Source of the DNA: Fimbriimonadia bacterium
Lineage (GTDB): Bacteria > Armatimonadota > Fimbriimonadia > Fimbriimonadales > JABRVX01
NCBI GenBank assembly: GCA_039961735.1
Contig: JABRVX010000012.1
Coordinates: forward strand, 1-64,000
Length of the DNA: 64,000 bases
Reading direction: 5' to 3'
Numbering within the stretch: the first letter of the stretch is position 1; each line of letters begins with the position of its first letter. The position numbers and the translations under genes were made by a program. Positions 10,924 to 46,165 of this stretch are shown here, one piece after another. Below the pieces are notes generated by a model. That model did not search any database and was not told where the DNA came from. It worked only from the letters and a program-made list of their open reading frames with translations.

Positions 10924-10930
10924 GGTTCAA
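10879..10930 (+). repeat. Attachment repeat DR1 (attL-type)
   Basis: A 52-base sequence running from the anticodon loop of tRNA-Ala through the CCA and 7 bases beyond (ggttcaa). It is identical to DR2 at 19575-19626 and related to DR3 at 49701-49749. Repeat identity beginning inside the anticodon loop is what tyrosine integrases that cross over in anticodon loops leave behind. Confidence 0.9.
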
Positions 10931-18958: not shown

Positions 18959-19010
18959 GAAATCTCCAACTGAAGTTAGGGTCACGGCTCCGCCGGAGCG
19001 GAGCGAACGA

Positions 19011-31034: not shown

Positions 31035-32585
31035 TTACCTATCCCTACCGAACGTGCTGTAGAGATCCCGGAAGAACTCGACACGCTTTCTCAGCTCGTC
31101 ATGTTCGCACTTTTGCCGCTGTGGGCCACCAAACTGGACACAAGGGCCAAAAAGAAAGGCATCGCCTCCTGTTGCAGGAGCTTCTGAGGCGGTTCGCGGA
31201 ACGCGTCTTTCTTCCACGACGGCCCCCGTGGGAAAGAAGAAGTTTTGGACCCGCTTTTTGTCGCTGACATCTGCTGTTTGCCAAAAGCGTTCAACCTGGT
31301 CGAAGAACCGTTTGCCGTAGTCGATCAGGATGTTGATATGCGGTTCGCGGTCGTTCGCACTCGATTTCGATAGCCTGGCTTCAATGCTCCTGAGTTTGGA
31401 TTCGTACTCCTCGAACATCTGTTTAGCGAGGTGGTCAGGGACGACTGCATCGGCAACCTTCCTGGCAAGGCTTTTCTGTTGACTCTCGATTCGCTCGCGT
31501 TCCTTGCGCAGTTCTTCGACGAGCTTCCCATAGTGGCTTCGCTCTTGCTCCCAGAAAGCCCGAAGGTCGGTCGCCATTTCATCGCTTAGATCGAACTCCG
31601 ATCGAAGGAAGCGAAGCCGGTGCAGGAATTGGTGCTCGACGAATTCTCTCGGAAGATTGACCCGGGAGCAGTGCCGACACCGATAGTAGGCGTAACGACT
31701 TCTTCGGCCCCTAGACCAGCAAGCGGTGAGGAACTGGCCGCACTGACATCGAATGGTGCCGCGAAGGGGGAAGTCTTCGTGATCGCGCTGAGTGACCCTG
31801 GGGTGGTTTGACGGGGCGACCGCTGCTTGAGCGGCCTCAAAGAGTTCGACCGAGATGAGCGGAGTGAACGGCAAAACTCCGCGGCTCTTCACACCGAATG
31901 CCTCGATGATGCCGATGTACGCCTTGTTGCGGATCATCTTGTAAAAGCCGTTCCGTTGGATTGGAACGCCGTGCTCGTTGAGCCACTCCCGAACCTCGGC
32001 GATTCGGATCTTTCGGGCTATTTTTTCAAATGCCTCGATTACCAGCGGCCCCGTTCTTGGGTCAGGCTCAATGTTTGCCTTTCCGTCAATCCGCACGTTG
32101 CGATAGCCTGCGGGAGCCCTCCAGACCCATCGGCCTTGGGAGACTGCCTCCCTCATACCATTGAACGTACGCTCGGATCGAACGTCGTTGTCGAACTGGG
32201 CTGTGGCCGCCAACATGCTCTCAAGAAACTTTCCGGCAGGCGAGTCATCGAATCGCTCGTCGATGGACTCAACACGAATGCCGAGGTTTCGCAGGTGGCG
32301 CTTCAAGTGATGGTAGTCCTCTGAGTATCTGGCGAAGCGATCAATCTTCGGCACGACCAACAGGTCGATCTTGCCCTTCTGTTCCTCGCAGTAGCGCAGC
32401 ATTTGCTTGAGCACGGGGCGATTGTCTGTCTTGGCCGACTCTCCCTCTTCCACGAACTGCTTGACGAGGCGGTAGCCCTTGAGAGCCGTGAACTCAATCA
32501 CGCGCCGCCGCTGAGTCACGAGAGATGTACCGTCAGTTGCCTGGCGGTCGGTTGAAACTCGGATGTAGGCTATTGCGCGTACCAT
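31035..32585 (-). CDS. Large serine recombinase
   Basis: 516 residues. The resolvase catalytic domain has Ser11 in IAYIRVSTDRQ, the nearby Arg, and LLVVPKIDRFAR. It is followed by the recombinase domain (KIRIAEVREWLNEHGVP), a zinc ribbon (RCQCGQ ... YYRCRHC) and a coiled coil (about 345-400), as in phiC31-type integrases. It is the last gene of an operon with replication genes and starts within the stop region of a 59-codon ORF. Its own att sites were not found. Confidence 0.93.
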   Translation of the reverse strand: MVRAIAYIRVSTDRQATDGTSLVTQRRRVIEFTALKGYRLVKQFVEEGESAKTDNRPVLKQMLRYCEEQKGKIDLLVVPKIDRFARYSEDYHHLKRHLRNLGIRVESIDERFDDSPAGKFLESMLAATAQFDNDVRSERTFNGMREAVSQGRWVWRAPAGYRNVRIDGKANIEPDPRTGPLVIEAFEKIARKIRIAEVREWLNEHGVPIQRNGFYKMIRNKAYIGIIEAFGVKSRGVLPFTPLISVELFEAAQAAVAPSNHPRVTQRDHEDFPLRGTIRCQCGQFLTACWSRGRRSRYAYYRCRHCSRVNLPREFVEHQFLHRLRFLRSEFDLSDEMATDLRAFWEQERSHYGKLVEELRKERERIESQQKSLARKVADAVVPDHLAKQMFEEYESKLRSIEARLSKSSANDREPHINILIDYGKRFFDQVERFWQTADVSDKKRVQNFFFPTGAVVEERRVPRTASEAPATGGDAFLFGPCVQFGGPQRQKCEHDELRKRVEFFRDLYSTFGRDR

Positions 32586-32749
32586 TTCTTGAACATGATG
32601 TAGATGATCTCGGCGAGTTGCCGAGTCTGTTCTCTTGTCAGCTTCGCAGGTTTTTGGGATTTGTCACTAGGCAAAGGAACGATGCATCCGTGAAACTCCA
32701 ATTGCGGTTCTTGCGATGCCTCGCCGCTTTTTCGATTCTTAGAGGTCAT
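32570..32749 (-). CDS. Small 59-residue protein between replication gene and serine recombinase
   Basis: ATG at 32749 shares ATGA with the stop of the Rep_O-like gene, and its TAG stop lies inside the recombinase start (16-base overlap). The product begins MTSKNRKSGEASQEPQ and ends with a helical, basic segment (LTREQTRQLAEIIYIMFKKW). No family recognised. Overlaps on both sides argue strongly that it is translated. Confidence 0.68.
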   Translation of the reverse strand: MTSKNRKSGEASQEPQLEFHGCIVPLPSDKSQKPAKLTREQTRQLAEIIYIMFKKWYAQ

Positions 32750-33189
32750 TTCGAGTCGTCGTTTGTTTCTTTCTTTGAGTGATAGTTGCTTTTGTTGTTT
32801 TCGCTTTGCGAACTTCGCAACGTGAAATCTCCAAGTCCGATCCGACGCCGGTACAGTGCCGATTCAAGAAAGAGGGGATGGATCGCAAAGACAAGCCTCG
32901 ACCGGGATCGCCTGCGTTCGGCGGTCGAATACATTCGCCGGTTGAATCGGTCTCGGACGACGATCAGCCCACGTTTGACAAGGGTGTCCACGGCGCGGCT
33001 AACGGCGGCGCTTTCCCGGCCCGTGTGAGCTTTGAGTTGGCTGTGACTGAGCCAGTCTTCAGGCTTCTGCCAGCCATAGGTCTGCCGGACGATGACGCAG
33101 AGCACCCGCCACTCCGTGTCGCTCAAGAACTTCATCACCCGGTCCAAGAGCAGGTTCGGGAATGGCGTCGTGTTGGCCAGCCTACTCAT
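32746..33189 (-). CDS. Phage replication protein O-like winged-helix protein
   Basis: 147 residues. The first 100 match the N-terminal domain of phage replication protein O (PF04492): NTTPFPNLLLDRVMKFLSD, EWRVLCVIVRQTYGW and a winged helix ending in LVKRGLIVVRD. The C-terminal tail is polar and rich in Ser/Asn/Lys. It would recognise a replication origin. It is coupled to genes on both sides by overlapping codons. Confidence 0.78.
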   Translation of the reverse strand: MSRLANTTPFPNLLLDRVMKFLSDTEWRVLCVIVRQTYGWQKPEDWLSHSQLKAHTGRESAAVSRAVDTLVKRGLIVVRDRFNRRMYSTAERRRSRSRLVFAIHPLFLESALYRRRIGLGDFTLRSSQSENNKSNYHSKKETNDDSK

Positions 33190-33472
33190 TGGCGTACACC
33201 GGAGGATCGTAGTCGTTCTCGATGGCGGAGATAAGCAGCGATGCCGGTCTTCGAGCGGCGCGAAGCGGAAGCCAGTTCAGCTGACGCTCAATCCGCTCGG
33301 CGGGATACTGATCGACCAGGCTTCGGGCCTTTCGAAGGCCGACTCCGACATGGACGAGCTCCAGGACGAGCTCTTCATCAGGAGAAAGGACCGCATCATC
33401 CGGCGTTGGGCGGCGACGCCTCTTCCCGTCTGCCTGGGGCAGGATCTCGCCGATCGGCTCGAAACCGCTCAT
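33182..33472 (-). CDS. Small replication-associated protein
   Basis: 96 residues. The C-terminal half (LRKARSLVDQYPAERIERQLNWLP, then ASLLISAIENDYDPP) matches a module that commonly ends plasmid and phage replication initiators; here it is a separate gene overlapping the Rep_O-like gene by 8 bases. The two may be halves of a split initiator. Confidence 0.65.
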   Translation of the reverse strand: MSGFEPIGEILPQADGKRRRRPTPDDAVLSPDEELVLELVHVGVGLRKARSLVDQYPAERIERQLNWLPLRAARRPASLLISAIENDYDPPVYANE

Positions 33473-34098
33473 TCCAGGAATCCTTTCGCAAACCAGAGAA
33501 CCAGCAGAATCAGTAATGCTCCGGCCAGCACCCAGCTCGCGCGGTCTGGTTGTGGTCCGTCAGGGCTAGAAGCGAGTTCGGCCGGTAGGCTGAGAGGGCG
33601 TGGCTTTGACGGTGCTCCCGCAAGTCCGAGCGACATTGAGTCGATCGAACGGAAGAAGGCAGGTGATCCAAGATCCAGCGCGATCATCGAGTCGGCCAGG
33701 CTCTCAAGTCCGACAACTCTGATGGGGCGACCAGAAAAGTCGGCAGCTGCCAAACGAGCCGCCCGAGAGACTTGAGACGAGCTAACGATCATGCCGGCCG
33801 GAATCTGATCGCGAAGCAGAATGCCTCGCAGCTCATCGACCGCCCGCTTTGAAAGTGGTGATCGCCAGTGCCGGATCTGCACTGCGACCTCGATGCCGTC
33901 TTCTCCAATCTGAACAAGGAAGTCCGGACCCACGGAGCCTCGGCCGCGTCGGCGAGGGCGGTTGAGCGTTCGAATGCAGTGATAGCCACTTGCTCCGAGC
34001 CAGAGCCAAACGATTCTCTGAAATGACTTGAAATCGAGGCTCGAAAGCATTGAGCGGACATATAAACTGCGGCTGCTGTTGCTGTCGCGGCCGCTCAT
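33469..34098 (-). CDS. Membrane-tethered Mrr-like nuclease domain, possibly inactive
   Basis: 209 residues. Residues 20-130 resemble the Mrr catalytic domain (PF04471): Asp59 in VGPDFLV, then IEVAVQIRHW and MIVSSSQVSRAARLAA. The expected QxK catalytic lysine is Arg76 (Q74-I-R76). A single transmembrane helix lies near 187-205. It may bind or cut DNA at the membrane, or be a catalytically dead regulator. It shares ATGA overlaps with genes on both sides. Confidence 0.7.
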   Translation of the reverse strand: MSGRDSNSSRSLYVRSMLSSLDFKSFQRIVWLWLGASGYHCIRTLNRPRRRGRGSVGPDFLVQIGEDGIEVAVQIRHWRSPLSKRAVDELRGILLRDQIPAGMIVSSSQVSRAARLAAADFSGRPIRVVGLESLADSMIALDLGSPAFFRSIDSMSLGLAGAPSKPRPLSLPAELASSPDGPQPDRASWVLAGALLILLVLWFAKGFLE

Positions 34099-34508
34099 CC
34101 TCGGCCCTCCATAAACTCGGCCACATCACCAGACCACTTGCCGGGCTGAACGCGGGACCACTGAGGCTTGATGCTGCCGTCCAAGTTGTGGAGCCGATCG
34201 GGCAAACACCCCTTGCAGCCTGCCAGCTTGCAGACGTGTTTGGTCGGAAAGGACCCATCCTCGGAGAACACATCGCGGACATTCAGCTTGCGCGCCAGCT
34301 GATACTCGAGGTTCCTGATGATCGGCGCCACCGTCCTGTAAAGCGGATTTGTCCGGCCATGAACGATATGGCAGATCGTGGACTTAGCCAGGCCGCTGTC
34401 CTTGGCCAAGCGCGAAGTTCCGCGAAAGCTATACCGGCTCGTGTGCATCATCAACGCGGCGACGCGGTTGTGGCAGACGGCTGGTGCGATACGAAGTTGT
34501 TTTGTCAT
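34095..34508 (-). CDS. Helix-turn-helix protein with C-terminal cysteines
   Basis: 137 residues from ATG 34508 (an in-frame start at 34610 would overlap the gene upstream). An XRE-like helix-turn-helix spans about 30-60 (RGTSRLAKDSGLAKSTICHIVHG). The C-terminal half has CKLAGCKGC, a possible metal site. It is the first gene of the tightly overlapping operon that ends with the serine recombinase, and so may be its regulator. Confidence 0.65.
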   Translation of the reverse strand: MTKQLRIAPAVCHNRVAALMMHTSRYSFRGTSRLAKDSGLAKSTICHIVHGRTNPLYRTVAPIIRNLEYQLARKLNVRDVFSEDGSFPTKHVCKLAGCKGCLPDRLHNLDGSIKPQWSRVQPGKWSGDVAEFMEGRG

Positions 34509-34578
34509 TGCGAAATCCAGCGTGCCCGCCGAGGGGAATGGCCGCAATTGAAGTTTCTCCAACCGAACATTTCCCGAA

Positions 34579-35148
34579 CTATTTCGGCCCACGCGTGATG
34601 CGACGCGCAACCTGAAACTCGCTCATTTCCTGCTCCCTCAACATCGAACGAATCGATGCGGATGCATTGACAAGCTTGAGTCGATTCGCCCGAACAAAAG
34701 CCGAAACATACGTTCGAGATCGAATATCGAACGAGTGCCAACTTCCCGAGGAGCCAAGGTAGCGAACGCTCCGAATGAGCGCCACACAGCCGGCGAACTG
34801 GCTTCGCTTAAGCCGAGCAAAGAGCCATGCAACGCCAATCGAAGCGAGGGCGGAACCGAGCAAGAAGGCCGCAAAGCTGACATACCAAGCCGCCCCAAGT
34901 CCCAGAGCGACGAATGATCCGACTCCCAAGAGGGCAACCAGGGACAAGGCTGCAATGAGGAGTCGGTCCGCAACCCGAACGTGGGTGCGGCACTGATGAC
35001 AATATGGGATGTCCCATGCCCAGCCCCGAGTCTTGGAGTTTCGGTTTCTCTCAGTCCCGCTGATCGTCAGCCAGGTTCCAGGAAAGCGCCCGCAGCAGGC
35101 GCACTGCCGAGGGAAGGCGAACTGCTTGCCGGAAACATCGACTCTCAT
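34579..35148 (-). CDS. Membrane protein with zinc-ribbon head
   Basis: 189 residues. The N-terminal head has CACC (16-19) and CHQC (50-53), a probable zinc ribbon, followed by two transmembrane helices (62-83 and 87-110) and a cytoplasmic tail of about 75 residues with an arginine-rich end. The family was not identified. It lies 70 bases upstream of the helix-turn-helix gene. Confidence 0.6.
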   Translation of the reverse strand: MRVDVSGKQFAFPRQCACCGRFPGTWLTISGTERNRNSKTRGWAWDIPYCHQCRTHVRVADRLLIAALSLVALLGVGSFVALGLGAAWYVSFAAFLLGSALASIGVAWLFARLKRSQFAGCVALIRSVRYLGSSGSWHSFDIRSRTYVSAFVRANRLKLVNASASIRSMLREQEMSEFQVARRITRGPK

Positions 35149-35247
35149 CCTTCGACCATCCAGGACGCAGAATCCGCGTCAAATTTCAATCATCAAACCG
35201 AACAAAGACCGAACAAAGAAATGCCTCTCACAGCGAGGGGCAAGTGG

Positions 35248-35775
35248 TTAGAACTCCGGATTGCCGAACAGACAGCCGAGAAAGTCGCGGTTCACAATGC
35301 GCTCGATGAGGCGATCCACAGTCGGGTTGAATCGTGCGAATGTCGGCAGCCGATCCGGGGCCCGTCGCGAGATCACCAGGTCAACTTGAGGGTCGAACTG
35401 GTATCGCCAGAGTCGAGCCGCTCGGAATGGCTCATCCTTCAGATCCTTGCCAAGGTGATGATGGAAGCCACCTGAGAAGACGAGGACTCTGGGCGATCCC
35501 CAGCGAAGGGGCACGATCGCCACCCGCTGATGAGCTGGGTTGTGGATCCCGGTGACGACAACACCACTACTAAGGACGAGTGACTCTGTCGTTCGCTCGA
35601 TCTCGCCAAGTTCGCCCGGTGTGTGGTCGGGGCGACCGTGAGCCGCCTCGACTTTCACGAGCTTCGCTCCAAGCAGTCGGGCATTACCGTAGAGCCAAAG
35701 ACCGGCTGGCTCATAGAAGCCGGGCTCCGAATCGAAAGGAGCCGTTCGGGTTGGGGGTGCAAGGTGCGTTTTCAC
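35248..35775 (-). CDS. DprA/SLOG-like Rossmann protein (tentative)
   Basis: 175 residues. LVLSSGVVVTGIHNPAHQRV, then RVLVFSGGFHHHLGKDL and a late region ending ARFNPTVDRLIERI resemble the order of motifs in DprA/Smf-like nucleotide-binding folds, in which SGxxxxGID-type loops precede a second strand-loop. The match is weak. It is the last gene of the minus-strand cluster 37090-35248 downstream of the XRE/ImmA pair. Confidence 0.5.
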   Translation of the reverse strand: MKTHLAPPTRTAPFDSEPGFYEPAGLWLYGNARLLGAKLVKVEAAHGRPDHTPGELGEIERTTESLVLSSGVVVTGIHNPAHQRVAIVPLRWGSPRVLVFSGGFHHHLGKDLKDEPFRAARLWRYQFDPQVDLVISRRAPDRLPTFARFNPTVDRLIERIVNRDFLGCLFGNPEF

Positions 35776-35807
35776 CCACCGACCGTCTCAACGAATTGAG
35801 GCGGCGG

Positions 35808-36770
35808 CTAACTGAGTTGCAAGGTTGAAACGATAGCGGCTTGCACGTCGATCCCAGTGAAGTCCTTCGGCCTTGAGACTTGCGTGATTCGACTTCTCGG
35901 CAGGAATTCGCAAATGGCTTCAACCTTCTTACGGCCACCGAATACGACCCAATGGAACGAACTGTCCGCCAACCGTTCTAACTCGACCATTCCTGATCCA
36001 AGGGCGAGCCCCAGGGCATTGGACGACGTGCCAGTCTGAGCGTTGACCGCAAGAGTTCGGACGTATCGGCCCTGCCTCTTCAGCCAATCCGCGAGGAACT
36101 CCAAATCCTCGGGTCTTCGCGCGTTCCATCCGAGTGTCGGGATAGCCGGTAGCCCTGCTCGATTTGCCCTTGCTGCCTCATGGAGCGATCGGCGCATGTT
36201 CAGCACTTGTCGGACCGGACACATTGAGCCGTCGTCGTAAACTGAATATCCCGGAGAGACGAAGACGATGCGACCACCAAGGAGTCTGAGATGATCGAAG
36301 AAGTCTTGATCTCCAGCCGCAACTCCAAGCCGCTCCTGCAGTCGATCGAGAGACTCCTGATGAACCAGCAAGGCTGTCGCGGAACTGATACCGTATGATT
36401 GACGCCAGGCCGCGAGCTTCGGCCCGTTCTTGCTGAGGATGCCACCAATGTCAGTCAGCTTTGCAGCAACGACTCGGTGCCCCCCGCTGTCATCCAGCTT
36501 TTCCCTTGCTGAGAGATTCCAGATGCATGCAGGGAGCCTCGGGATGGGGATCACAGATTTGAAGTCCAGGTTCTCTGGAATGCTGCATTCCGCCCATTCC
36601 CGATAAGCGCGGTCTTGTAGCGAGGGAGCCGCGCACCAGGGATGCTCAGGATTGCAAGCGTGCTCACCCGAGAGGCCGAGGCGCCCCGCGTCGCACAGCG
36701 GAACCATGTCTCGGCACGCCAAGCCGATGAGACAGTCTTGCTGGGCTATAAGATCACCTCTGCGATGCAT
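35808..36770 (-). CDS. Unknown protein with N-terminal Cys cluster and DUF4417-like barrel (tentative)
   Basis: 320 residues. The first 46 hold five cysteines (13, 19, 26, 39, 46), enough for a zinc or iron-sulphur site. The second half recalls DUF4417-type proteins: FVSPGYSVYDD, RQVLNMRRSL, GLPAIPTLGWN, RTLAVNAQTG and HWVVFGG, alternating strand and helix as in a TIM-like barrel. The function is unknown. It overlaps the small gene at 36746 by 25 bases and lies 32 bases from the DprA-like gene, so the three genes are a unit. Confidence 0.6.
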   Translation of the reverse strand: MHRRGDLIAQQDCLIGLACRDMVPLCDAGRLGLSGEHACNPEHPWCAAPSLQDRAYREWAECSIPENLDFKSVIPIPRLPACIWNLSAREKLDDSGGHRVVAAKLTDIGGILSKNGPKLAAWRQSYGISSATALLVHQESLDRLQERLGVAAGDQDFFDHLRLLGGRIVFVSPGYSVYDDGSMCPVRQVLNMRRSLHEAARANRAGLPAIPTLGWNARRPEDLEFLADWLKRQGRYVRTLAVNAQTGTSSNALGLALGSGMVELERLADSSFHWVVFGGRKKVEAICEFLPRSRITQVSRPKDFTGIDVQAAIVSTLQLS

Positions 36771-37090
36771 CGAGGCGGCATGACCTGGGCGGCGTAAACA
36801 CGCGCTCTTCGAATTCTTCGTCCACGCAGGAGCTCTGCGTCTTCGCCTACGATATCGCCGATGCGCGTTCCGATCGCTGTGTGGGCGGTCCAGAAGGTGT
36901 CGTTTGGACGAATAGAGATCGGTTCCCCGGACCGAAGGCCCTTTAGAGCCGCCGTATCCAGATTCGCCAGCTCAATTAGGAGGGTCTCAGGAGTCTCAGG
37001 AGGACACTCTCCTCCGCCACCGCCCGGCTGGCCGGGCTCTGGCAATCGTGGAGTTCGGGGGATTTGCTGCTTCGGGTTATTCTTAGGCAT
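36746..37090 (-). CDS. Small protein of unknown function, first gene of the three-gene cluster
   Basis: 114 residues: a Pro/Gly-rich tail of about 30 residues (RLPEPGQPGGGGGE), then a compact domain (LIELANLDTAALKGLRSGE, ISIRPNDTFW, RVYAAQVMPPRC). No family recognised. AGGA lies 7 bases before the ATG at 37090. It is preceded by an operator-like site shared with the XRE gene promoter. Confidence 0.55.
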   Translation of the reverse strand: MPKNNPKQQIPRTPRLPEPGQPGGGGGECPPETPETLLIELANLDTAALKGLRSGEPISIRPNDTFWTAHTAIGTRIGDIVGEDAELLRGRRIRRARVYAAQVMPPRCIAEVIL

Positions 37091-37117
37091 AGTAGTTCCT
37101 GCGCTGCTGTACCGCGT

Positions 37118-37138
37118 ATCCGCAGATCAGCGTATTAT
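37118..37138 (-). promoter_or_regulatory. Operator-like site S2, upstream of the 36746-37090 gene
   Basis: ATCCGCAGAT (37118-37127), followed on the plus strand by an AT-rich block GTATTAT, is repeated as site S1 at 38223-38232 with the same flanking order. The 10-mer is a near-palindrome. On the minus strand it lies between a TAATAAT-type -10 box and the ribosome site. Confidence 0.5.
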
Positions 37139-37175
37139 TATGACGCGCCTTTTCGTGGTTTGGATGCATCTGTGG

Positions 37176-37883
37176 TCAAAAGAGGGCTGGACTGGGCTCG
37201 GTCTCTACGATCAAACTGGCCTTCAGCAAGCGGATTCTCGCGAGCGCCTTCGAAACGCAAAACCAAGACGACGCATCCTCGATGACTTCCTGACCCAGTG
37301 CGGAATCCTGCCAGATCTCGGAGTAGGAATCGGATGCTTGCGCCTTCGCTGTCACCCGCGCGGTTAGCTCTGAAATGGGCATCAGCAAAGCGCCGCACAT
37401 GTACCAAGCCTGATACTCGAACAAGTCTCCCTGGCCAAGAGACTCGGCTCCGTCACGGTAGCAGACCTGCAAATACTGCACGCTAGTATCGAAAAGCGAT
37501 TCCTGGGCTTTACGTTGGATGAGTGGATCATGGAGCAAGACATGTCCGAGCTCGTGGGCGAGCGTGGACCGGAGCCGGTTTTCATTCGAAGACTCATTCA
37601 GCAAGCCGGAAACTCGGACAATCGGCTTCGCACGCGGCCGAAACAAAGTGAGACCTTCAACTCCTTCACCGAACTCCCCAAGATCGGCATAGGTGTCCAG
37701 TTCTTCCGCAAATTTCTCGATCAGCGTTGTCAGGTCGTCTGTCGATAGCGGAAACAGGTTAGCCGAGCGCCGAGATTGGACGTGAGCCATGACGATCTGC
37801 TCGGCGGTCGAGTCCATCCGCTTCGTCGGCTGAAACTCAGGCTTACCCAAAAGCTCAGATAGCGTCAGCACTTCACTTGGCAT
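37176..37883 (-). CDS. ImmA/IrrE-family metallopeptidase
   Basis: 235 residues with the M78 signature AHELGHVLLHD (His110, Glu111, His114) and FEYQAWYMCGALLMP, where the third ligand lies. Such peptidases cleave or relieve a partner XRE repressor in response to DNA damage or a signal. The partner is encoded directly upstream, overlapping by 11 bases. Confidence 0.9.
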   Translation of the reverse strand: MPSEVLTLSELLGKPEFQPTKRMDSTAEQIVMAHVQSRRSANLFPLSTDDLTTLIEKFAEELDTYADLGEFGEGVEGLTLFRPRAKPIVRVSGLLNESSNENRLRSTLAHELGHVLLHDPLIQRKAQESLFDTSVQYLQVCYRDGAESLGQGDLFEYQAWYMCGALLMPISELTARVTAKAQASDSYSEIWQDSALGQEVIEDASSWFCVSKALARIRLLKASLIVETEPSPALF

Positions 37884-38196
37884 CGCCCTTCTCCAACGTC
37901 TTCCTGAAAGCTGCTATCGCCTTCTTCACGACCTCAGTCTCCGGATTGAGTCCCCTCAGATCAGGGGAGACCTCGCCCGCGCTGTAATAGAGGGCGTCTT
38001 TGTCGAGTTCGAGCACTCTAGCAAACTCCTCGATCAGGTAATCGCTCGGCGCTCCTCTGCGGTCGCGCTCCAGGTCGTTCAGATACTGAGGTGAAATTGG
38101 GCCACCATCCTCTTTCAGGATCTTCGCGGCCAGCTCTTTCTGGCTCAAACCGAGTGCTTTCCGACGCTCCGAGATCAGTTTTCCAAAAGATACCAT
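37873..38196 (-). CDS. XRE-family repressor (ImmR-like) paired with ImmA
   Basis: 107 residues with an N-terminal Cro/CI helix-turn-helix (LISERRKALGLSQKELAAKI, SPQYLNDLERDRR) and a short C-terminal helical part. Together with the overlapping ImmA gene it forms the classic repressor/anti-repressor pair of integrative elements. Its promoter region carries site S1, which also overlaps the apparent promoter of the divergent hsdM gene. Confidence 0.87.
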   Translation of the reverse strand: MVSFGKLISERRKALGLSQKELAAKILKEDGGPISPQYLNDLERDRRGAPSDYLIEEFARVLELDKDALYYSAGEVSPDLRGLNPETEVVKKAIAAFRKTLEKGDAK

Positions 38197-38222
38197 GTGA
38201 GGTCACGTGCGGCGATTCGCAA

Positions 38223-38243
38223 ATCCGCAGATATGTGTATAAT
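38223..38243 (+). promoter_or_regulatory. Operator-like site S1 with hsdM -10 box
   Basis: ATCCGCAGAT (38223-38232) is followed by a consensus TATAAT at 38238-38243 reading toward hsdM. The weak -35 TTCGCA is at 38216-38221, spacer 16. The same 10-mer with a related AT block occurs at S2 (37118). XRE binding here would control both the repressor gene and the restriction island. Confidence 0.55.
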
Positions 38244-38340: not shown

Positions 38341-39603
38341 ATGCTAACCGGTGACCTGCGAAATCAAATCGACCGACTCTGGGACTCTTTCTGGTCGGGC
38401 GGAATCTCCAACCCTCTCGAAGTGATCGAACAGATCACGTATCTCCTCTTTCTGCGACGCCTCGACGAACTGCAGCAGCTGGAAGAAAATAAGGCCAATC
38501 GCCTCGGCACGCCGATCGAGCGCCGCTTCTACCCCGAGGGCAAGGATTCCAAGGGCCGTTTGTATGAAGACCTCCGCTGGAGCAGGTTCAAGCACATGGC
38601 GCCAGGCGAGATGTACGAGGTCGTCAGCGAGCACGTCTTCCCGTTCCTGCGCACCCTCGGCGGAAGCAACGGGAACTACACCCGACACATGAAGGATGCC
38701 CGCTTCACCATCCCAACCCCAGCGCTGTTAGCCAAGGTCGTGGACATGGTGGACAAGGTGCCAATGGAGGACCGCGATACCAAGGGCGATCTTTATGAAT
38801 ACATGCTCGGCAAGATTGCAACTGCCGGGCAAAACGGCCAGTTCCGAACGCCGCGTCACATCATTCAGCTTATGGTCGAGATGACCCAGCCCAAGCCCGA
38901 CGACCTTATCTGCGATCCGGCCAGCGGTACGTGCGGCTTCCTGGTGGCGGCGGGCGAGTACATCCGCGACCACCACCCCGAAGCCCTTCGCGACCCGAAG
39001 CTCCGCCAGCACTTCCACGAGAAGATGTTCCACGGCTTCGACTTCGACAACACCATGCTCCGCATCGGCAGCATGAACATGATGCTGCACGGCGTCGAGA
39101 ACCCGGACATCACCTACAAGGACTCTCTGGCCGACGAGCACAGTTCGGATGCGAACAAGTACACGTTGGTGCTCGCCAATCCGCCGTTCGCCGGGTCGCT
39201 CGACTACGAGAACACGGCAAAGGACCTGCTGCAGATCGTTAAAACGAAGAAGACTGAGCTGCTCTTCCTGGCGCTCTTTATCCGCATTCTCAAACCCGGT
39301 GGACGGGCCGCTGTTATCGTGCCGGACGGGGTTCTTTTCGGCTCCAGCACGGCTCACAAGGCGCTTCGCCAGATGCTTGTGGAAGACCACAGGCTCGATG
39401 GAGTGGTGAGCCTTCCTAGCGGAGCCTTTAAGCCGTATGCCGGAGTCTCGACGGCGGTCCTGTTCTTCACGAAGACCAACTCTGGTGGGACTGATCAGGT
39501 TTGGTTTTACGACGTGAAAGCGGATGGTTGGAGCCTCGACGACAAGCGTCAAGCGCTCTTGCCCGAGGAGAAGTTGGGTCCAGTTGCCAAGCTGCCGAAG
39601 TAG
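38341..39603 (+). CDS. hsdM: Type I restriction-modification methyltransferase subunit HsdM (frameshifted near the 3' end)
   Basis: 420 residues are read from ATG 38341 before a stop at 39603. An N-terminal helical domain (LRNQIDRLWDSFWSGGISNPLEVI) is followed by an N6-adenine methyltransferase fold with Asp192 in DPASGTCGF and NPPF at 280-283. The family normally continues for about 90 more residues; exactly that segment occurs in the next frame from 39597 to 39869. A one-base deletion relative to the intact gene, or a sequence error, explains it. The methylase core is intact, but the C-terminal part that contacts HsdS would be lost. Confidence 0.9.
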   Translation: MLTGDLRNQIDRLWDSFWSGGISNPLEVIEQITYLLFLRRLDELQQLEENKANRLGTPIERRFYPEGKDSKGRLYEDLRWSRFKHMAPGEMYEVVSEHVFPFLRTLGGSNGNYTRHMKDARFTIPTPALLAKVVDMVDKVPMEDRDTKGDLYEYMLGKIATAGQNGQFRTPRHIIQLMVEMTQPKPDDLICDPASGTCGFLVAAGEYIRDHHPEALRDPKLRQHFHEKMFHGFDFDNTMLRIGSMNMMLHGVENPDITYKDSLADEHSSDANKYTLVLANPPFAGSLDYENTAKDLLQIVKTKKTELLFLALFIRILKPGGRAAVIVPDGVLFGSSTAHKALRQMLVEDHRLDGVVSLPSGAFKPYAGVSTAVLFFTKTNSGGTDQVWFYDVKADGWSLDDKRQALLPEEKLGPVAKLPK

Positions 39604-39869
39604 AGCATCCGAAGAACAACCTGCCGGATGCACTCAACCGATGGTTCGAAAGGGACGGGTTAGAGCGCGAGCGGCCCCGGACTGCTCAGAGCTTCTGCGT
39701 TCCAAAGTCGGAGATCGCCGCCAACAGTTATGACCTCAGCCTGAACCGGTACAAGGAGGTCGAGCACGAAGAAGTCGAGCACCGGGCCCCCAAGGAGATC
39801 CTCGCCGAGCTATGGAAGCTGGAAGAAGAGATTCAGGCGGGAATGAAGGAACTGGAGCGGATGCTGTGA
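39597..39869 (+). pseudogene. hsdM: Detached C-terminal segment of HsdM
   Basis: In the -1 frame relative to hsdM the sequence reads EVEHPKNNLPDAL, RTAQSFCVPKSEIAA, DLSLNRYKEV, then EEIQAGMKELERML: the normal end of type I HsdM proteins. The junction lies at about 39590-39603. No slippery heptamer or own start codon with a ribosome site was found, so this looks like a mutational or sequencing frameshift rather than a separate gene. Confidence 0.85.
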
Positions 39870-39981: not shown

Positions 39982-40809
39982 ATGAGCGGGCAAGGCACCG
40001 TGGCCGCGGGGCAGCCGACCACCCATCGTCCAGATCGATATCGGCTCTACATTGACGAGTCCGGGGACCATGCATACAAAAAGCTCGCTGAGGTGAGCCA
40101 TCGCTACCTGGCTCTTCTCGGCCTATGGTGCCGCCAAAGGGACGAGTACGTCGCTTTGCACGATAGCCTTGAGAAGCTCCGTCGCGACGTGTTCGGACCA
40201 CGGCCGGACGATCCGGTCATCCTCCACCGTGAAGACATCATCAACAAGCGTGGAGACTTCTACGTGCTGCAGGACCCAGGGAAGGAGAAGGCCCTGAATG
40301 ATGGGCTGCTCCAGCTCGTTCAGAACTCAAGCTTTCGGATGGTGTGCATCGTCATCGACAAGCAGCAACATCAAGACAAGTACGCGAGCCCGATGCATCC
40401 CTACCACTACTGTTTGGCGGCGGTGCTCCAGAGGTATTGCGGCTGGCTGAACTACAAGAACGTCGTCGGGGACGTGTTGGCCGAAGCGAGAGGGAGGGCT
40501 GAAGACCAGCAACTGGAGAGCGCCTATGCGAACATCCACGCCAGCGGAACGCTGTATCTCGATGCGTCGACGGCGCAGCGGGTGCTGACGAGCAAGTCCC
40601 TGAAGCTTAGGCGCAAGGACGCGGACATCGCGGGCTTACAGCTGGCGGACGTCTTGGCTCATCCGGTTAAGCAGTGGGTCTTGTGGCAGAAGGGCATCAT
40701 CGCGGAACCTCAAGGCTACGGACGCCGGCTCGCCGATGCCGCGCGGCTGAAGTTCAACGTCAGGAACGACACTGGTCAGGTGGAGGGCTATGGCTGGAAG
40801 CTCCTCTGA
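39982..40809 (+). CDS. DUF3800 protein (RNase H-like fold)
   Basis: 275 residues. The N-terminal YIDESGDH (Asp25, Glu26, Asp29) and the late GLQLADVLAHPV are the conserved acidic sites of DUF3800 (PF12686), an RNase H-like family often found inside restriction and other defence loci. A nuclease role is likely but unproven. GGGAG precedes the ATG. Confidence 0.85.
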   Translation: MSGQGTVAAGQPTTHRPDRYRLYIDESGDHAYKKLAEVSHRYLALLGLWCRQRDEYVALHDSLEKLRRDVFGPRPDDPVILHREDIINKRGDFYVLQDPGKEKALNDGLLQLVQNSSFRMVCIVIDKQQHQDKYASPMHPYHYCLAAVLQRYCGWLNYKNVVGDVLAEARGRAEDQQLESAYANIHASGTLYLDASTAQRVLTSKSLKLRRKDADIAGLQLADVLAHPVKQWVLWQKGIIAEPQGYGRRLADAARLKFNVRNDTGQVEGYGWKLL

Positions 40810-40817
40810 AATGAGAA

Positions 40818-40845
40818 AGGGACGACTCCTTTCGGATTCGTCCCT
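40818..40845 (+). terminator. Hairpin after the DUF3800 gene
   Basis: AGGGACGA / TCGTCCCT with an inner TCC/GGA pair. There is no T tract; it may be a weak terminator or attenuator before the next operon. Confidence 0.45.
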
Positions 40846-40977
40846 CGCCGGCCCATTCGGGCCGTCCACCTGCGCAGTCGCGCATTACATTCATTATGGG
40901 CAAACGCGGCACAAATGTCAACCGTTCCCGGCAGTTTTCGGGAGCGAGGCAAAGTGGATCGAAGTGTGGAGGGAGGA

Positions 40978-41877
40978 ATGAGCGAGCTTCGCCTCTACTC
41001 CATTGAAGGCGGCAAGGCCGTCGAAAATCATGCTTCCGGCTTCAAGCTCGAACGCGAGGTCCAGAATCTCTTCGAAGCCAATCTTGAAGCTCTGCTCGGA
41101 GTCCGTTTCGTCGCCTCCGAGTTCCCGACCGGTCAGAGCGGGCGCATCGACACGCTTGGCATTGACGAGAACGGCTTCCCGGTTGTCATCGAGTACAAGC
41201 TCGACAAGAACCGCACAGTCATCAATCAGGGAATGTCGTACATGGCATGGCTCCGCAGCCACAAGGCTGAGTTCTGGAAGGTCGTCTTCGAGAAGCTCGG
41301 CAAGGAGGCCGCTGACGCCATCGACCACTCTTCAACGCGCCTCATCTGCATCGCCACCGACTTCACCCGTGACGACCTTGGCGCATACGAGCTTATGCCA
41401 AACAGCATCGATCTCGTGCGGTACCGCAGATTCGGCGAGAGCCAACTGCTTCTTGAACGGATCACTTCATCGGAAGTCACCGCTTCCCCGGTTACAGGAA
41501 CGACCAGCACGAAGAGCGGCCCTGACAAGCCCATTTCTCAGTGGCTCGAGGAGGCCCCGCCCAACATCAAGGCTCTCTACGAGGCTCTGAAGCAAGCCAT
41601 TCTCAGCCAAGGCGAGGATGTCTCCGAGAAAGCGACCAAACTTTACATCGCATACAAGCGGACTCGGAACTTCGCGACGATGACCTATGCGACGAAGACG
41701 GACCTCAACCTCTACCTTCACGTTAACGTGGAGGAAGTGGAGATGCGCGACGGCCTTCGCGATGTCCGAACGATCGGTCATTGGGGGACGGGAGACCTCG
41801 AAGTCAAGATTCGCACCTTAGAGGACGTCGAGAGGTCGCTACCGCTGATCCAACGAGCTTATGAGGGGCAAGTATGA
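40978..41877 (+). CDS. PD-(D/E)xK nuclease-like protein with DUF5655 domain
   Basis: 299 residues from ATG 40978, chosen for the GAGGGAGGA directly upstream (an in-frame start at 40915 lacks one). The N-terminal half has a nuclease-type core: Asp58 in SGRIDTLG and Glu72-x-Lys74 in VIEYKLDK. The C-terminal 110 residues resemble DUF5655 (ISQWLEEAPPNIKALYEAL, KLYIAYKRTRNF). Found in defence neighbourhoods, it probably binds or cuts DNA. It shares ATGA with the membrane protein gene. Confidence 0.8.
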   Translation: MSELRLYSIEGGKAVENHASGFKLEREVQNLFEANLEALLGVRFVASEFPTGQSGRIDTLGIDENGFPVVIEYKLDKNRTVINQGMSYMAWLRSHKAEFWKVVFEKLGKEAADAIDHSSTRLICIATDFTRDDLGAYELMPNSIDLVRYRRFGESQLLLERITSSEVTASPVTGTTSTKSGPDKPISQWLEEAPPNIKALYEALKQAILSQGEDVSEKATKLYIAYKRTRNFATMTYATKTDLNLYLHVNVEEVEMRDGLRDVRTIGHWGTGDLEVKIRTLEDVERSLPLIQRAYEGQV

Positions 41878-42314
41878 GCCCAGACCGGCCAAACCTCATC
41901 AAGCACTTGGAGTTCATCCAAATCACCATCGTTCGAATGGCAGCCAACTCCTTCGTGATCAAGGGCTGGACGGTCACACTTGTGGCCGCCATCCTGGCCT
42001 TCACATCGAAGGACGCGAACCCCAACGCAGCCTCAATCGCGCTGATTCCAGCGATCATGTTCTGGAGTCTTGACGCCTACTACCTTCGCACGGAGCGCGA
42101 GTTCCGGGCGCTCTATGACCAAGTCCGACAAAACCCTCCAAAGGACGATTTGGAGGTGGACTTCTCCCTCGATGTTTCGAAGCTGAAGCCAAAGACTGCA
42201 GGTGCGTTGCGAGTCGCCTTCACTAGAACTCTCGCGCCGTTCTATTTAGCACTGATCGGCGTGATCATCGCGGTCTGGTTGCTTGCACCAAAGCTCATGG
42301 GAGGTGATTCCTAA
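41874..42314 (+). CDS. Membrane protein paired with the TIR-like gene
   Basis: 146 residues: a soluble N-terminal helix (IKHLEFIQITIVRMAANSF), two adjacent membrane segments (about 30-45 and 52-68, the latter ending FWSLDAYYLRTEREFRALYD) and a C-terminal helix (about 118-140). I recognise this plan from small membrane proteins encoded next to TIR-like genes. Its stop shares one base with the TIR-like start (TAATG), so the two are made together. Confidence 0.75.
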   Translation: MSPDRPNLIKHLEFIQITIVRMAANSFVIKGWTVTLVAAILAFTSKDANPNAASIALIPAIMFWSLDAYYLRTEREFRALYDQVRQNPPKDDLEVDFSLDVSKLKPKTAGALRVAFTRTLAPFYLALIGVIIAVWLLAPKLMGGDS

Positions 42315-42805
42315 TGGCCCGGCGAGCCTTTTTTTCGTTTCACTACGAGCTCGACGTTCATCGTGCATCCATCATTCGCAATGCGCCGCTTACACACAGC
42401 GATACGGTGAAGAGCTTCATCGATGCCTCCCTCTGGGAAGAGGCAAAGCGCAAGAGCACAGATGCCCTGAAGAAACTCATCATGGACGCCCTCCAGGGTA
42501 CGTCAGTGACCGTTGTTCTAATCGGCAGCAGAACAAACGACCGACCTTGGGTGAAGTACGAACTCGAACAGAGCATCGCACGGGGAAATGGAATCGTGGG
42601 CGTTCGCATAAACAAACTAAAGAACCTTGGTGGGCAAGTGACTGGGAAGGGAGTAAACCCACTGGACAACGCCACCGTGACATTCAAGAGCGGATCGAAG
42701 AAGCCCGCTTCAACCTATTACAAGACCTACGATTACGTAGATGATGACGGCTACAAAAACCTCGGAACTTGGATCGAAGAGGCAGCGAGGCTGGCAGGCA
42801 AATGA
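42314..42805 (+). CDS. TIR-like domain protein (ThsB/DUF1863 type)
   Basis: 163 residues. RRAFFSFHYELDVHRASIIRN at the start, then TVVLIGSRTNDRPWVKYELEQSI and GIVGVRI, match the TIR-like domain of Thoeris ThsB proteins (PF08937). Family members make a nucleotide signal from NAD on phage infection. No SIR2/ThsA effector is nearby; the partner here is the membrane protein upstream. Its stop shares ATGA with hsdS. Confidence 0.83.
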   Translation: MARRAFFSFHYELDVHRASIIRNAPLTHSDTVKSFIDASLWEEAKRKSTDALKKLIMDALQGTSVTVVLIGSRTNDRPWVKYELEQSIARGNGIVGVRINKLKNLGGQVTGKGVNPLDNATVTFKSGSKKPASTYYKTYDYVDDDGYKNLGTWIEEAARLAGK

Positions 42806-43950
42806 GTCGCCCTATGATTAAGCTCGGCGAGGTTGCCGAATTTGCCCGTGACGGTGTCCTACCGAATCACATCAAGTCTGGGACACTATTCGTTGGACTT
42901 GAGAACATCAAGAAGGGTGGAGGTTTTGAGGGTGTATCGACAGTTGACGAGGGCGAGCTTGCAAGCACGAAGTTCGCTTTCACGCCGAAGCATGTTCTGT
43001 ACGGGAAGCTACGACCCTACTTAGCGAAGATAGCTTTGCCTGACTTCGAAGGCGTCTGCAGCACTGACATCATTCCCATCTTGCCAGGGCCAAAGTTGGA
43101 TCGTCGCTACCTGGCTCACTATCTGTTGACGCCGAAAATGATTGCGCTTGCCTCCGATCGTGCAGCCGGTGCGAATCTGCCTCGCCTTAGCCCCCGCGTA
43201 CTAATCGACTTTCCCATTCCGTTGCCACCAATCGATGAGCAAAGGCGGATTGCGGCGATGCTCGACAAGGCTGAGGAGCTTCGCGCCAAGCGCCGCGCCG
43301 CCATCGCCCTGCTCGACCAACTCCCCCAAGCCATCTTCCTCGAAATGTTCGGCGACGGAGTTCCGCTCAAATCTCTTTCAGAGCTCGCAGAGCTTAAGCG
43401 TGGCCCATTCGGCGGGGCTCTCAAGAAGGAGTTCTTTGTTGAATCAGGATTCAAGGTCTATGAGCAGGGCAACGTTATTGCAGATGATTTTGAAATCGGG
43501 AACTACTTCATTGACGAGCGACGATTTAGCAAGATGCGTGGATTCGAGATTGCGCCCGATGACCTACTCGTTTCGTGCTCTGGCACGTTAGGGCGGATCG
43601 CCCAGGTTCCTCGTAATGCAGCACCAGGTCTAATCAACCAAGCATTACTTCGCCTGAGGGTGCGGAACGACCAGATGAGACCTACGTTTCTTCGATTGGC
43701 TCTGCAGTCCCATGCGGTTCAGCAGGTATTGGCAGGTTTCTCAAGAGGAAGCGGTTTGCAGAATTTTCCGCCGATGTCAGAAGTACGATCCTTATTGATC
43801 CCTGCGCCTGATCTGCATGCCCAAGACAAGTTTATTGTTCGAGTCGAGCAGATTGCAGGGATCAGAGCCGCCTATCAATCCGTCCTCGACGAATCCCACG
43901 CTCTCCGCACCTCGCTTCAATGGAGTGCCTTCTCAGGAGATTGTGGATGA
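42802..43950 (+). CDS. hsdS: Type I restriction-modification specificity subunit HsdS
   Basis: 382 residues with two target-recognition domains: the first ends with LPPIDEQRRIAAMLDKAEELRAKR, the conserved helical spacer, and the second occupies about 195-370. The two half-repeats would recognise the two parts of a bipartite DNA site. The start at 42802 follows from the ATGA overlap with the TIR-like gene. It is coupled to the KAP gene by another ATGA. Confidence 0.9.
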   Translation: MSRPMIKLGEVAEFARDGVLPNHIKSGTLFVGLENIKKGGGFEGVSTVDEGELASTKFAFTPKHVLYGKLRPYLAKIALPDFEGVCSTDIIPILPGPKLDRRYLAHYLLTPKMIALASDRAAGANLPRLSPRVLIDFPIPLPPIDEQRRIAAMLDKAEELRAKRRAAIALLDQLPQAIFLEMFGDGVPLKSLSELAELKRGPFGGALKKEFFVESGFKVYEQGNVIADDFEIGNYFIDERRFSKMRGFEIAPDDLLVSCSGTLGRIAQVPRNAAPGLINQALLRLRVRNDQMRPTFLRLALQSHAVQQVLAGFSRGSGLQNFPPMSEVRSLLIPAPDLHAQDKFIVRVEQIAGIRAAYQSVLDESHALRTSLQWSAFSGDCG

Positions 43951-46124
43951 GCCAATGGATCGACAGCCCGCTTGAAGAGGAAGAAGCGGACGAACTTGGT
44001 AGGGGACCCTTTGCTGCCCTCATTGCCACCGCACTTTTGGCGGAAAACAAGAAGCGAGCGACGATCGTAGGCCTTACCGGAGGTTGGGGTACAGGAAAGA
44101 GCACCGTCGCCAACTTTGTCGTCAGCCGAGTCAGGGCCGCGAACAAAGACATCGAGATCATTCGCTTTGAGCCATGGATGGTGAGCACTTCGGAAGCCCT
44201 TGCTCGGGAGTTCTTCAAGGAGCTTGGAAAGGCTGTGCTTCCAAAGAGCGACACGAAGGAAGCCAAGGAGAAGCGTGCCCGATTCTACAAGTACACGGCC
44301 TTGACGTTGGACGCACTGGCTCTGACCACCGACGCTGGCAACACCCTTGGAGTCCCGTTCGCCGGGGTTACCACAAAAGCGCTCCGGGGGAGCAAGAAAG
44401 CCATTGACCTAGCCGCAAAGGGACTCGAAGCTCAAGCGCACCAGCCGACTCTCCGAGAAGCTCGCGAAACGCTGAGCAAGGCACTGGTTGACTTAGAAAA
44501 GCCGGTCGTGGTGGTGATCGACGATATTGACCGGCTCAATACAGACGAAGTCCGAACTGTGTTTCAACTCATCAAGGCATGTGCTGACTTTCCGAACGTC
44601 CGCTATCTACTGCTCTATGATCGAGACCAAGTTGTCCACGCGCTCAAGGATTCTGTCAATGATGCCGAGGCGTTCCTGGAGAAGATTGTTGGGCAGATTT
44701 TCGATTTGCCTCTGGCGACAAAGAAGCAGAGAGAAATAGTTTTGGCTCGGAATCTTGAAGCGCTTGGCATCCATGAGCTGGAAGGCAAGCCGCTTGAGCG
44801 GCTCCAAGAAGTGTTTCGTAGTGTGCTCTTGCCTGGGTTGCCGACTGTTCGTCATGTCAAGCGGTATGTGGGCACCGTTGCGTCACTTCTCCCAGGCGTG
44901 GTAGTGGATCAATATCGCAATGTCGATCCTGCCGACTACTTGGCGCTTGAGTTCCTTCGACAATATGTTCCGAAGCTATACAACGTGCTCCGAGAGGAGG
45001 AGGCACCTGTTCCCGGGGGCCTTGTTTTCGAGATCGCACACTCTGAGAAGCTTGCCGAGCGACGCAAGCAGTCGCGGGAAGAAGCGATCCCGGAATATGA
45101 GCCCATGCGATCATTGGCGACTGAAGCACTCGCCATTCTAAACGACGACGTCGACAATTACGCCGGCGTTCGCCGTGCTTGGACTCTGCGGCAACATACT
45201 GAGCGGCGCTTTGCTTCCGAGCATTGGAAGCCAGTGTATTTCGGATTTCACTCGGGCCGAGCGGCCCTAAAGGATGAGGACTGGAGCGATATGCGGACGA
45301 CGCTCGGTCAGCAAACTCAGGATTACCCTTGGCTTGACCGTCTTTCCAACGCCGAAGACCGCACAATCTTTGCCCGTGCCGTAGCCGACCGAGCGATTGA
45401 CTTGTCGATAGACGAAGCTAAGAAGCTGTTTGAAGTCATCGTCGCCTGGGGCGAGAAGCAGGCTTCTGAACCTTATGACAACTTTGCCAATGTCATGGAT
45501 CCGATGGGCGCAGTTTGGCTAATCGGGACGTCGTGTCTCGTTCGCATCGCCAAGGCAGAGAACGCTGTCCAAGTCGTACTCGATGTATTAGACAAGACGA
45601 ACGCCGTGGGTTGTATTGGCTACATCTGCGGAATGGAGCATGAGCAGATAAAGAAGCTTCACGGGCAGGGAGATTGGACTACGAGCGACCGTTTTGCAGC
45701 GCTCTCTGAAAAACTGACGCCCATGTTGCGTCATGCCGTTGAATCGGAAGCCGTGTTCGATCACCCGAGTCCTGACGAGTTCCTCCTGGCTTGGAATTGG
45801 CTCGACGGCCAAGAGGCTTACAAGAAGTGGTTTGACGAGATGTCGTCAGATCCTGCTCGATTGGCAAAATACGTGAACCATGTGATGGCGATCATGCGCA
45901 AGCAACAGGGCTTCTCAGGATGGGGCGGCGAATTGGATTCCCCCTTCTTCAAGGGGCTCGAAGCGCTAGAAGACTCGCTGCTAACCGAAGATGGCCTTTG
46001 GGCGCGGGATTTCTGCATCAAATCGATGCGGCGAAACGCCCGATTCCACAGTGGCGAGATATTGGAGGATGACAAGCAGGAAGAAGACAGTGCCACTGAC
46101 GACGGGGGCCGCGAGAAGCAGTAG
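43947..46124 (+). CDS. KAP-family P-loop NTPase
   Basis: 725 residues from ATG 43947. Walker A is GGWGTGKS (45-52) and Walker B lies in VVVVIDDIDR (187-196), followed by the KAP signature RYLLLYDRDQVVHAL. Between them is a moderately hydrophobic stretch (about 115-145) where many KAP proteins have membrane insertions. The C-terminal 350 residues are unassigned. KAP NTPases recur in phage-defence loci; placement between hsdS and hsdR ties this one to the island. Confidence 0.85.
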   Translation: MSQWIDSPLEEEEADELGRGPFAALIATALLAENKKRATIVGLTGGWGTGKSTVANFVVSRVRAANKDIEIIRFEPWMVSTSEALAREFFKELGKAVLPKSDTKEAKEKRARFYKYTALTLDALALTTDAGNTLGVPFAGVTTKALRGSKKAIDLAAKGLEAQAHQPTLREARETLSKALVDLEKPVVVVIDDIDRLNTDEVRTVFQLIKACADFPNVRYLLLYDRDQVVHALKDSVNDAEAFLEKIVGQIFDLPLATKKQREIVLARNLEALGIHELEGKPLERLQEVFRSVLLPGLPTVRHVKRYVGTVASLLPGVVVDQYRNVDPADYLALEFLRQYVPKLYNVLREEEAPVPGGLVFEIAHSEKLAERRKQSREEAIPEYEPMRSLATEALAILNDDVDNYAGVRRAWTLRQHTERRFASEHWKPVYFGFHSGRAALKDEDWSDMRTTLGQQTQDYPWLDRLSNAEDRTIFARAVADRAIDLSIDEAKKLFEVIVAWGEKQASEPYDNFANVMDPMGAVWLIGTSCLVRIAKAENAVQVVLDVLDKTNAVGCIGYICGMEHEQIKKLHGQGDWTTSDRFAALSEKLTPMLRHAVESEAVFDHPSPDEFLLAWNWLDGQEAYKKWFDEMSSDPARLAKYVNHVMAIMRKQQGFSGWGGELDSPFFKGLEALEDSLLTEDGLWARDFCIKSMRRNARFHSGEILEDDKQEEDSATDDGGREKQ

Positions 46125-46165
46125 CTAATCTGTTCAGGTTTAGCTAGGATGATGAAAACAGAAAC

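What the first reader, a model, noticed from the sequence alone, without database searches (positions are those of the whole stretch)
35248..38243. Candidate new system: XRE/ImmA-controlled cluster with a Cys-cluster DUF4417-like protein and a DprA-like protein
Three tightly packed genes of no clear function follow an XRE-ImmA repressor/antirepressor pair. A 10-base site (ATCCGCAGAT) with a similar AT-rich flank occurs both at the XRE promoter (38223) and at the promoter of the cluster (37118), which binds the five genes into one regulon. A nucleotide-binding-like fold plus a possible metal or FeS TIM-like protein, inducible by an ImmA protease, has the look of a signal-activated defence or DNA-modification unit.
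Basis: partly seen in the sequence, partly recalled or inferred. Interest (0 to 1): 0.7.

Follow-up and report, generated by a model that had tools for sequence, protein, structure and literature searches.

The report
Damage-triggered switch beside restriction genes
In a mobile island of an Armatimonadota bacterium, a repressor and the protease likely to cut it control two matching DNA switches, one for themselves and one for a conserved pair of unknown proteins beside a DNA-restriction system; the same switch stands before very different operons, several of them defence-type, in other bacteria, so this looks like a portable alarm wired to a new, untested payload.

Summary
In detail: XRE (38196-37873), ImmA (37883-37176), p114 (37090-36746), p320 (36770-35808) and p175 (35775-35248) exist, and ATCCGCAGAT occurs exactly twice (37118, 38223). 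The regulatory half is right and stronger than claimed: 51 of 51 orthologous XRE-ImmA pairs carry the same operator 32-62 bp after ImmA, and 36 of 42 testable ones also upstream of XRE. A matrix made without the window ranks these two places first in its 64 kb. XRE-ImmA is CapH+CapP-like; elsewhere it precedes multi-ubiquitin, Bub-like, SbcDC and prophage operons. The 38223 operator also lies in the candidate promoter of divergent hsdM. p114-p320 is a real conserved pair (3 Armatimonadota genomes, likely a fourth), next to type I RM here and type III RM in G035. p320 is a remote DUF4417 relative with a conserved six-Cys N-terminus; no family matches either protein. p175 is DprA-like but belongs to the element backbone: 96.6% identical in G058 beside another cargo, with homology ending 19 bp upstream of its start codon. 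Best reading: ssDNA activates ImmA, XRE is cut, and p114-p320 (perhaps RM too) is induced. The effector's activity is unknown. Regulator known kind, payload new.

The parts
37873..38196 (-). XRE/HTH repressor, 107 aa, CapH-like
   Evidence: HTH_3 E 2.4e-10; PADLOC capH E 6.4e-5; 46-56% identical to XREs paired with ImmA on Rhizobium, Nitrosospira and Paraburkholderia plasmids
37176..37883 (-). ImmA/IrrE (M78) protease, 235 aa, CapP-like, HExxH motif (HELGH) present
   Evidence: Peptidase_M78 E 1.4e-6; PADLOC capP E 1.1e-10; H110, E111 and H114 invariant in 4 orthologues
38214..38241 (.). Operator U: upstream of XRE, inside the XRE/hsdM divergent promoter region; contains ATCCGCAGAT at 38223-38232
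   Evidence: 20.4 bits with a matrix that excludes the window
37113..37136 (-). Operator D: between ImmA stop and p114 start, next to an AT-rich -10-like stretch; contains ATCCGCAGAT at 37118-37127
   Evidence: 27.2 bits, best site in the window
36746..37090 (-). p114: small protein, Pro/Gly-rich disordered N-terminus and predicted beta-barrel; first gene of the effector pair
   Evidence: 38-45% identical in G035 and G149, same order, pN<pS; no Pfam/NCBIfam/PHROG/PADLOC family; low-confidence model
35808..36770 (-). p320: N-terminal six-Cys cluster (C13, C19, C39, C46, C62, C82) plus alpha/beta barrel-like domain, remote DUF4417 relative; second gene of the pair (overlaps p114 by 25 bp)
   Evidence: 51% identical in G035, partial copy in G149, 29% in G151; hhalign to DUF4417 prob 96%, E 3.4e-9
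35248..35775 (-). p175: short DprA-like (Rossmann/SLOG) protein; element backbone gene, not part of the conserved cluster
   Evidence: 49% identical to a chromosomal DprA (PF02481 E 1.7e-15); 96.6% identical in G058 with a different neighbour
38216..38243 (+). Candidate promoter of hsdM (TTCGCA-16-TATAAT) overlapping operator U
   Evidence: Consensus scan only, 10 of 12 matches; 1.0 expected in shuffles
38341..39869 (+). hsdM of the divergent type I RM operon; reading frame broken near 39603, C-terminal ~85 aa in another frame
   Evidence: N6_Mtase E 7e-59; frames
39982..49597 (+). Rest of the type I RM operon: DUF3800, PDC-S18/DUF5655, small membrane protein, ThsB-like TIR, hsdS, KAP NTPase, hsdR
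32059..35794 (-). Conserved element backbone (C-terminal serine recombinase part, RepO-like, Mrr, HTH protein, p189, p175), ~90% identical DNA in G058; boundary with the cargo at 35794

Best explanation
XRE-ImmA is a portable CapH+CapP-type alarm: XRE represses its own promoter (operator U) and the promoter of a two-gene payload, p114-p320 (operator D). ssDNA from phage attack, DNA damage or DNA entry would switch on ImmA, which would cleave XRE and release p114-p320. Because operator U also overlaps the candidate promoter of divergent hsdM, the same event probably alters expression of the adjacent type I RM operon. p114-p320 is probably a nucleic-acid-directed defence module: p320 with a metal-binding six-Cys domain and a DUF4417-like barrel domain as the likely enzyme, p114 its small partner. 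p175 (short DprA) is a backbone gene of the mobile element that now lies downstream by chance of cargo insertion. Shown by sequence: operators, pair conservation, homologies, backbone/cargo boundary. Inferred: repression, ssDNA sensing, cleavage, hsdM control and any activity of p114-p320.
For: Operator pair in orthologous XRE-ImmA loci across phyla: D in 51/51, U in 36/42, shuffled controls 0; window sites top-ranked by a matrix built without them. ImmA and XRE match capP and capH, HExxH conserved. The same pair precedes Multi_ubiq-E2-E1/JAB (L040) and a JAB-containing Bub-like operon (L042), DUF3892, and in Armatimonadota G119 SbcD-SbcC, divergent from cas3. CapH+CapP or CapW accompany 219 of 544 Bub operons, and CapP is activated by ssDNA (PMC13373217). 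p114-p320 conserved, ordered, overlapping, beside type III RM in G035 and in G149; G151 has a distant p320 whose upstream ORF ranks first of 2001 against the p114 model. Purifying selection. DUF4417 relation. Backbone status of p175.
Against: XRE-ImmA is joined to p114-p320 only in this window (n=1). No experiment shows that either protein is a defence effector; p320 and p114 hit no defence model. The distant p320 homologue in G151 sits in an ordinary chromosomal setting next to sufB and lacks the Cys cluster. hsdM control rests on a consensus promoter match only. In prophages the same regulator drives a phage-encoded pair of unknown function, so its payloads need not be defence.
Confidence: 0.6

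Rival explanations
1. One five-gene defence system: XRE, ImmA, p114, p320 and the DprA-like p175 act together.
For: All five are on one strand, p175 only 33 bp after p320, so they may well be co-transcribed here.
Against: p175 occurs without p114-p320 in dozens of loci and p114-p320 occurs without p175 next to it in G035. DNA homology with G058 runs through p175 and stops 19 bp before its start. No operator lies at p175.
Confidence: 0.08
2. XRE-ImmA is the element's own excision/transfer switch, like ImmR-ImmA of ICEBs1, and p114-p320 are element maintenance genes rather than defence.
For: The loci lie in an integrative element (recombinase, RepO-like, ArdC) and orthologous XRE-ImmA pairs are common in prophages, where they drive an unknown phage pair.
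Against: Close relatives of the element (G058, 90% identical backbone) lack XRE-ImmA, so the element does not need it. Elsewhere the regulator precedes ubiquitin-like, SbcDC and other operons on plasmids and chromosomes, and it has no operator near the recombinases in the window.
Confidence: 0.15
3. XRE-ImmA mainly times the type I RM operon (a controller-protein role, as with RptR or C proteins), and p114-p320 is an RM accessory such as a modification or specificity helper.
For: Operator U overlaps the candidate hsdM promoter; p114-p320 is next to RM in both close loci that can be judged (type I here, type III in G035). RptR controls type I RM islands by promoter repeats (PMC12255303).
Against: p114-p320 in G035 and G149 has no XRE-ImmA or operator. 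Most p175-linked RM operons of related elements lack XRE-ImmA. No sequence match of p320 to any methyltransferase.
Confidence: 0.17

Closest known systems
CapH+CapP (controllers of adjacent pathways)
   Same: HTH repressor followed by an ImmA/M78-type protease, upstream of diverse operons including Bub-like ones; capP E 1e-10, capH E 6e-5.
   Different: A distinct branch with its own conserved operator (consensus nATACGCTnATCAGCGGATCnGCG) placed both before XRE and after ImmA; payload p114-p320 not described before as far as could be found; divergent from type I RM.
DUF4417 (PF14386)
   Same: Shared core [SP]PxFSxYxD...QxxNxxRS...G..IPTxxW, hhalign prob 96%, E 3.4e-9.
   Different: Below Pfam detection; ~100 aa longer, N-terminal six-Cys domain; no ParB fusion, partner p114 instead.
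DprA (PF02481)
   Same: p175 is 49% identical over 118 aa to a chromosomal DprA beside ftsZ/dnaN.
   Different: Only the Rossmann core, 175 aa, in mobile elements next to RM cargo; not matched by Pfam itself.
tRNA-guanine transglycosylase / DpdA
   Same: Best Foldseek hit of the p320 model is TGT (4ghr, E 5.7e-5, TM 0.41).
   Different: Model confidence is low (pLDDT 49); no profile match to TGT or phage 9g DpdA; Cys cluster at the other end.
RptR-controlled type I RM islands
   Same: Small repressor with sites in the promoter of a type I RM island carrying embedded genes (PMC12255303).
   Different: Different repressor and site (TAGCTA repeats); here a protease partner and a second operon.

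Membership tests
CapH+CapP | HTH repressor and M78 protease genes adjacent, protease with HExxH | tested here: met
CapH+CapP | Located directly upstream of an operon with repressor sites in that operon's promoter | tested here: met
   Operator D in 51/51 loci
CapH+CapP | Associated with CBASS, Bub or other immune operons | tested here: inconclusive
   Multi_ubiq/E2/E1-JAB and JAB operons, SbcDC beside cas3, but also phage pairs; none CBASS
CapH+CapP | Protease activated by ssDNA cleaves the repressor | not testable with these tools
   Biochemistry needed; known for CapH+CapP (PMC13373217)
DUF4417 (PF14386) | Match above the Pfam gathering cut-off | tested here: not met
   p320 has no PF14386 hit at E<=1
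DUF4417 (PF14386) | Profile-profile homology over the core motif | tested here: met
   hhalign score 67, best of 100 column-shuffled controls 22.9
DprA (for p175) | Match to PF02481 | tested here: not met
   No hit for p175 or two short homologues; chromosomal paralogue hits at 1.7e-15
DprA (for p175) | ssDNA binding and RecA loading | not testable with these tools
   -
TGT/DpdA (for p320) | Sequence-profile homology to TGT or DpdA | tested here: not met
   hhalign prob 0.2% and 1%
HIRAN (for p114) | Fold or sequence match to HIRAN | tested here: inconclusive
   Foldseek to HLTF HIRAN prob 0.41, E 2-3; HamB prob 0.80, E 0.18, from a low-confidence model; no sequence hit

The most novel reading that the evidence does not exclude
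A damage-released repressor with twin operators co-induces, in opposite directions, a type I restriction operon and a previously undescribed two-protein effector (p114 + six-Cys DUF4417-like p320) that acts on nucleic acid, making p114-p320 a new RM-coupled defence module found so far only in Armatimonadota.
Probability: 0.25. Interest if true: 0.7.

Novelty: new variant of a known kind. Interest (0 to 1): 0.5.

Why it matters
It gives a sharply testable handle on two open points. One is how widely CapH/CapP-type alarms are reused: one regulator branch keeps the same twin operator from Armatimonadota to Rhizobium while its payload changes from ubiquitin-like conjugation to SbcDC nuclease to prophage genes, so the operator itself can be used to mine unknown payloads. 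The other is what DUF4417 proteins, common in actinobacterial and streptococcal phages, do: p320 is a cellular relative tied to restriction systems. It also shows that a DprA fragment can mark the edge of a swapped RM cargo slot in mobile elements.

Tried and rejected
(1) Direct family searches of p114, p320 and p175 in Pfam, NCBIfam, PHROGs and PADLOC gave nothing useful. (2) p320 and p175 in plasmids or viral contigs, and p320 in phages: no relatives. (3) PF14386 in relatives: no hits, and no control rang, so absence is not shown. (4) p320 as TGT/DpdA: suggested by Foldseek on a poor model, not supported by profiles; kept only as a fold hint. (5) p114 as HIRAN: only weak structural hits. (6) The 10-mer on its own: not significant; replaced by the comparative matrix. 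(7) p114 homology in G151 by hhalign failed; the HMM against shuffles is suggestive only. (8) Operator search at p114 in G035/G149: none, so the pair is not always under XRE-ImmA.

Full report
What is there. The window lies on contig C12 of an Armatimonadota genome (same order as Fimbriimonadaceae isolate ACE_ARM8, whose chromosome holds the best relative). Upstream and divergent is a type I RM operon (hsdM 38341, hsdS ~42799, hsdR 46166-49597) with embedded DUF3800, PDC-S18, TIR and KAP genes. On the other side lie Mrr, an HTH protein, a RepO-like protein, a serine recombinase and ArdC.

The operators. The 10-mer alone could be chance. The test was comparative. ImmA orthologues (37-42% identical) with their XRE occur on plasmids of Rhizobium phaseoli, Nitrosospira and Paraburkholderia. 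In each, a related sequence stands both before XRE and between ImmA and the next gene; the 14-mer TACGCTGATCTGCG is shared by the window's p114 promoter and the Rhizobium XRE promoter. With 44 further viral-contig loci and three Armatimonadota loci, the site after ImmA was found in 51 of 51 loci 32-62 bp from the stop, and the site before XRE in 36 of 42, with none in shuffled controls. That matrix was partly trained on these sites. The independent test is: a matrix without the window places its two best hits in 64 kb at 37113-37136 and 38214-38241 (27.2 and 20.4 bits; next best elsewhere 8.6). No site lies at p175 or inside the RM operon above that background. The upstream site overlaps a candidate hsdM promoter.

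What the regulator is. PADLOC capP and capH models hit ImmA (1e-10) and XRE (6e-5). CapH+CapP are known to control adjacent immune operons, the protease being activated by ssDNA, and to accompany Bub operons (PMC13373217). Here the payloads differ: Multi_ubiq-E2-ThiF/JAB-DUF6527, a JAB-containing ubiquitin-like operon, DUF3892, SbcD-SbcC divergent from cas3 in G119, and in prophages a ~390 + ~315 aa pair whose first member is phrog_37634. So the regulator is a reusable cassette. Whether every payload is defence is open.

The payload. p114 and p320 overlap and co-occur in G035 (51% identity for p320, 38% for p114), between a PF06189 5'-nucleotidase with DUF2130 and a type III RM pair in an integrase-bearing island (the RM and integrase genes there were named by eye), and in G149 after the same two genes, cut by the contig end. 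G151 has a distant p320 (29%) with an upstream ORF that ranks first of 2001 against the p114 model. These are the only hits among 291 genomes of the phylum. Substitution patterns show coding under constraint. p320 is a remote DUF4417 relative; its six N-terminal cysteines are kept in the window, G035 and the G149 fragment. AlphaFold models from two sequences are poor (pLDDT 49 and 54), so TGT-like and HIRAN-like Foldseek hits are hints only.

p175. A ~300 aa chromosomal homologue next to ftsZ and dnaN hits DprA (PF02481, 1.7e-15), and p175 matches it at 49% over 118 aa. Short p175-like proteins recur in many genomes of the order. In G058 p175, p189, p171 and Mrr are 89-97% identical, but the neighbour is a SNF2 helicase plus type III RM. 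DNA identity stops at 35794, between p175 and p320. Among the 11 loci with p175 at least 67% identical, 9 have RM or RM-like genes at the 5' side (several judged by eye). p175 therefore marks the edge of an RM cargo slot. A possible role is protecting entering DNA, since H. pylori DprA inhibits restriction and stimulates methylation (cited in PMC4489622); this is inference.

Mechanism and confidence. Repression by XRE at two operators and release by ImmA is well supported by conservation and by the CapH/CapP precedent, but not shown. Coupling to hsdM is plausible. The activity of p114-p320 is unknown; a nucleic-acid-directed, metal-dependent effector is the best guess from its company and DUF4417 kinship. 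Overall: regulator of a known kind with a clearly defined operator, payload new and untested.

Noticed in passing
window 38341-39869: hsdM is split: its C-terminal ~85 residues (NNLPDALNRWF...GMKELERML) lie in another frame after the stop at 39603; a real frameshift or an assembly error.
   Followed up: partly
window 41874-42805: Small membrane protein (weak DUF2270) plus ThsB-like TIR protein embedded in the type I RM operon, looks like a TIR/membrane pair.
   Followed up: no
window 40975-41877; L034:4301-5200: PDC-S18/DUF5655 protein embedded in type I RM operons of two different elements (75% identical DNA); a similar protein also in G171 (L121).
   Followed up: partly
L059:6405-8508 and about 40 other viral contigs: XRE-ImmA with twin operators drives a conserved ~390 + ~315 aa pair of unknown function in prophages (first member phrog_37634).
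   Followed up: partly
L003:6596-9007 and L012:6898-9303: DUF2130 protein and PF06189 5'-nucleotidase precede p114-p320 in two mobile regions; possibly part of a larger module.
   Followed up: no
L244:2984-11462: XRE-ImmA-operator-sbcD-sbcC divergent from a cas3 gene in Armatimonadota G119: same divergent layout as here.
   Followed up: partly
G132: One genome carries at least six short DprA-like p175 copies, suggesting repeated element insertion.
   Followed up: no
window 10849-18985: tRNA-Ala followed by a heavy-metal P-type ATPase and RND-type efflux genes (latter by eye) at the edge of the lower-GC island (about 10.9-49.6 kb).
   Followed up: no
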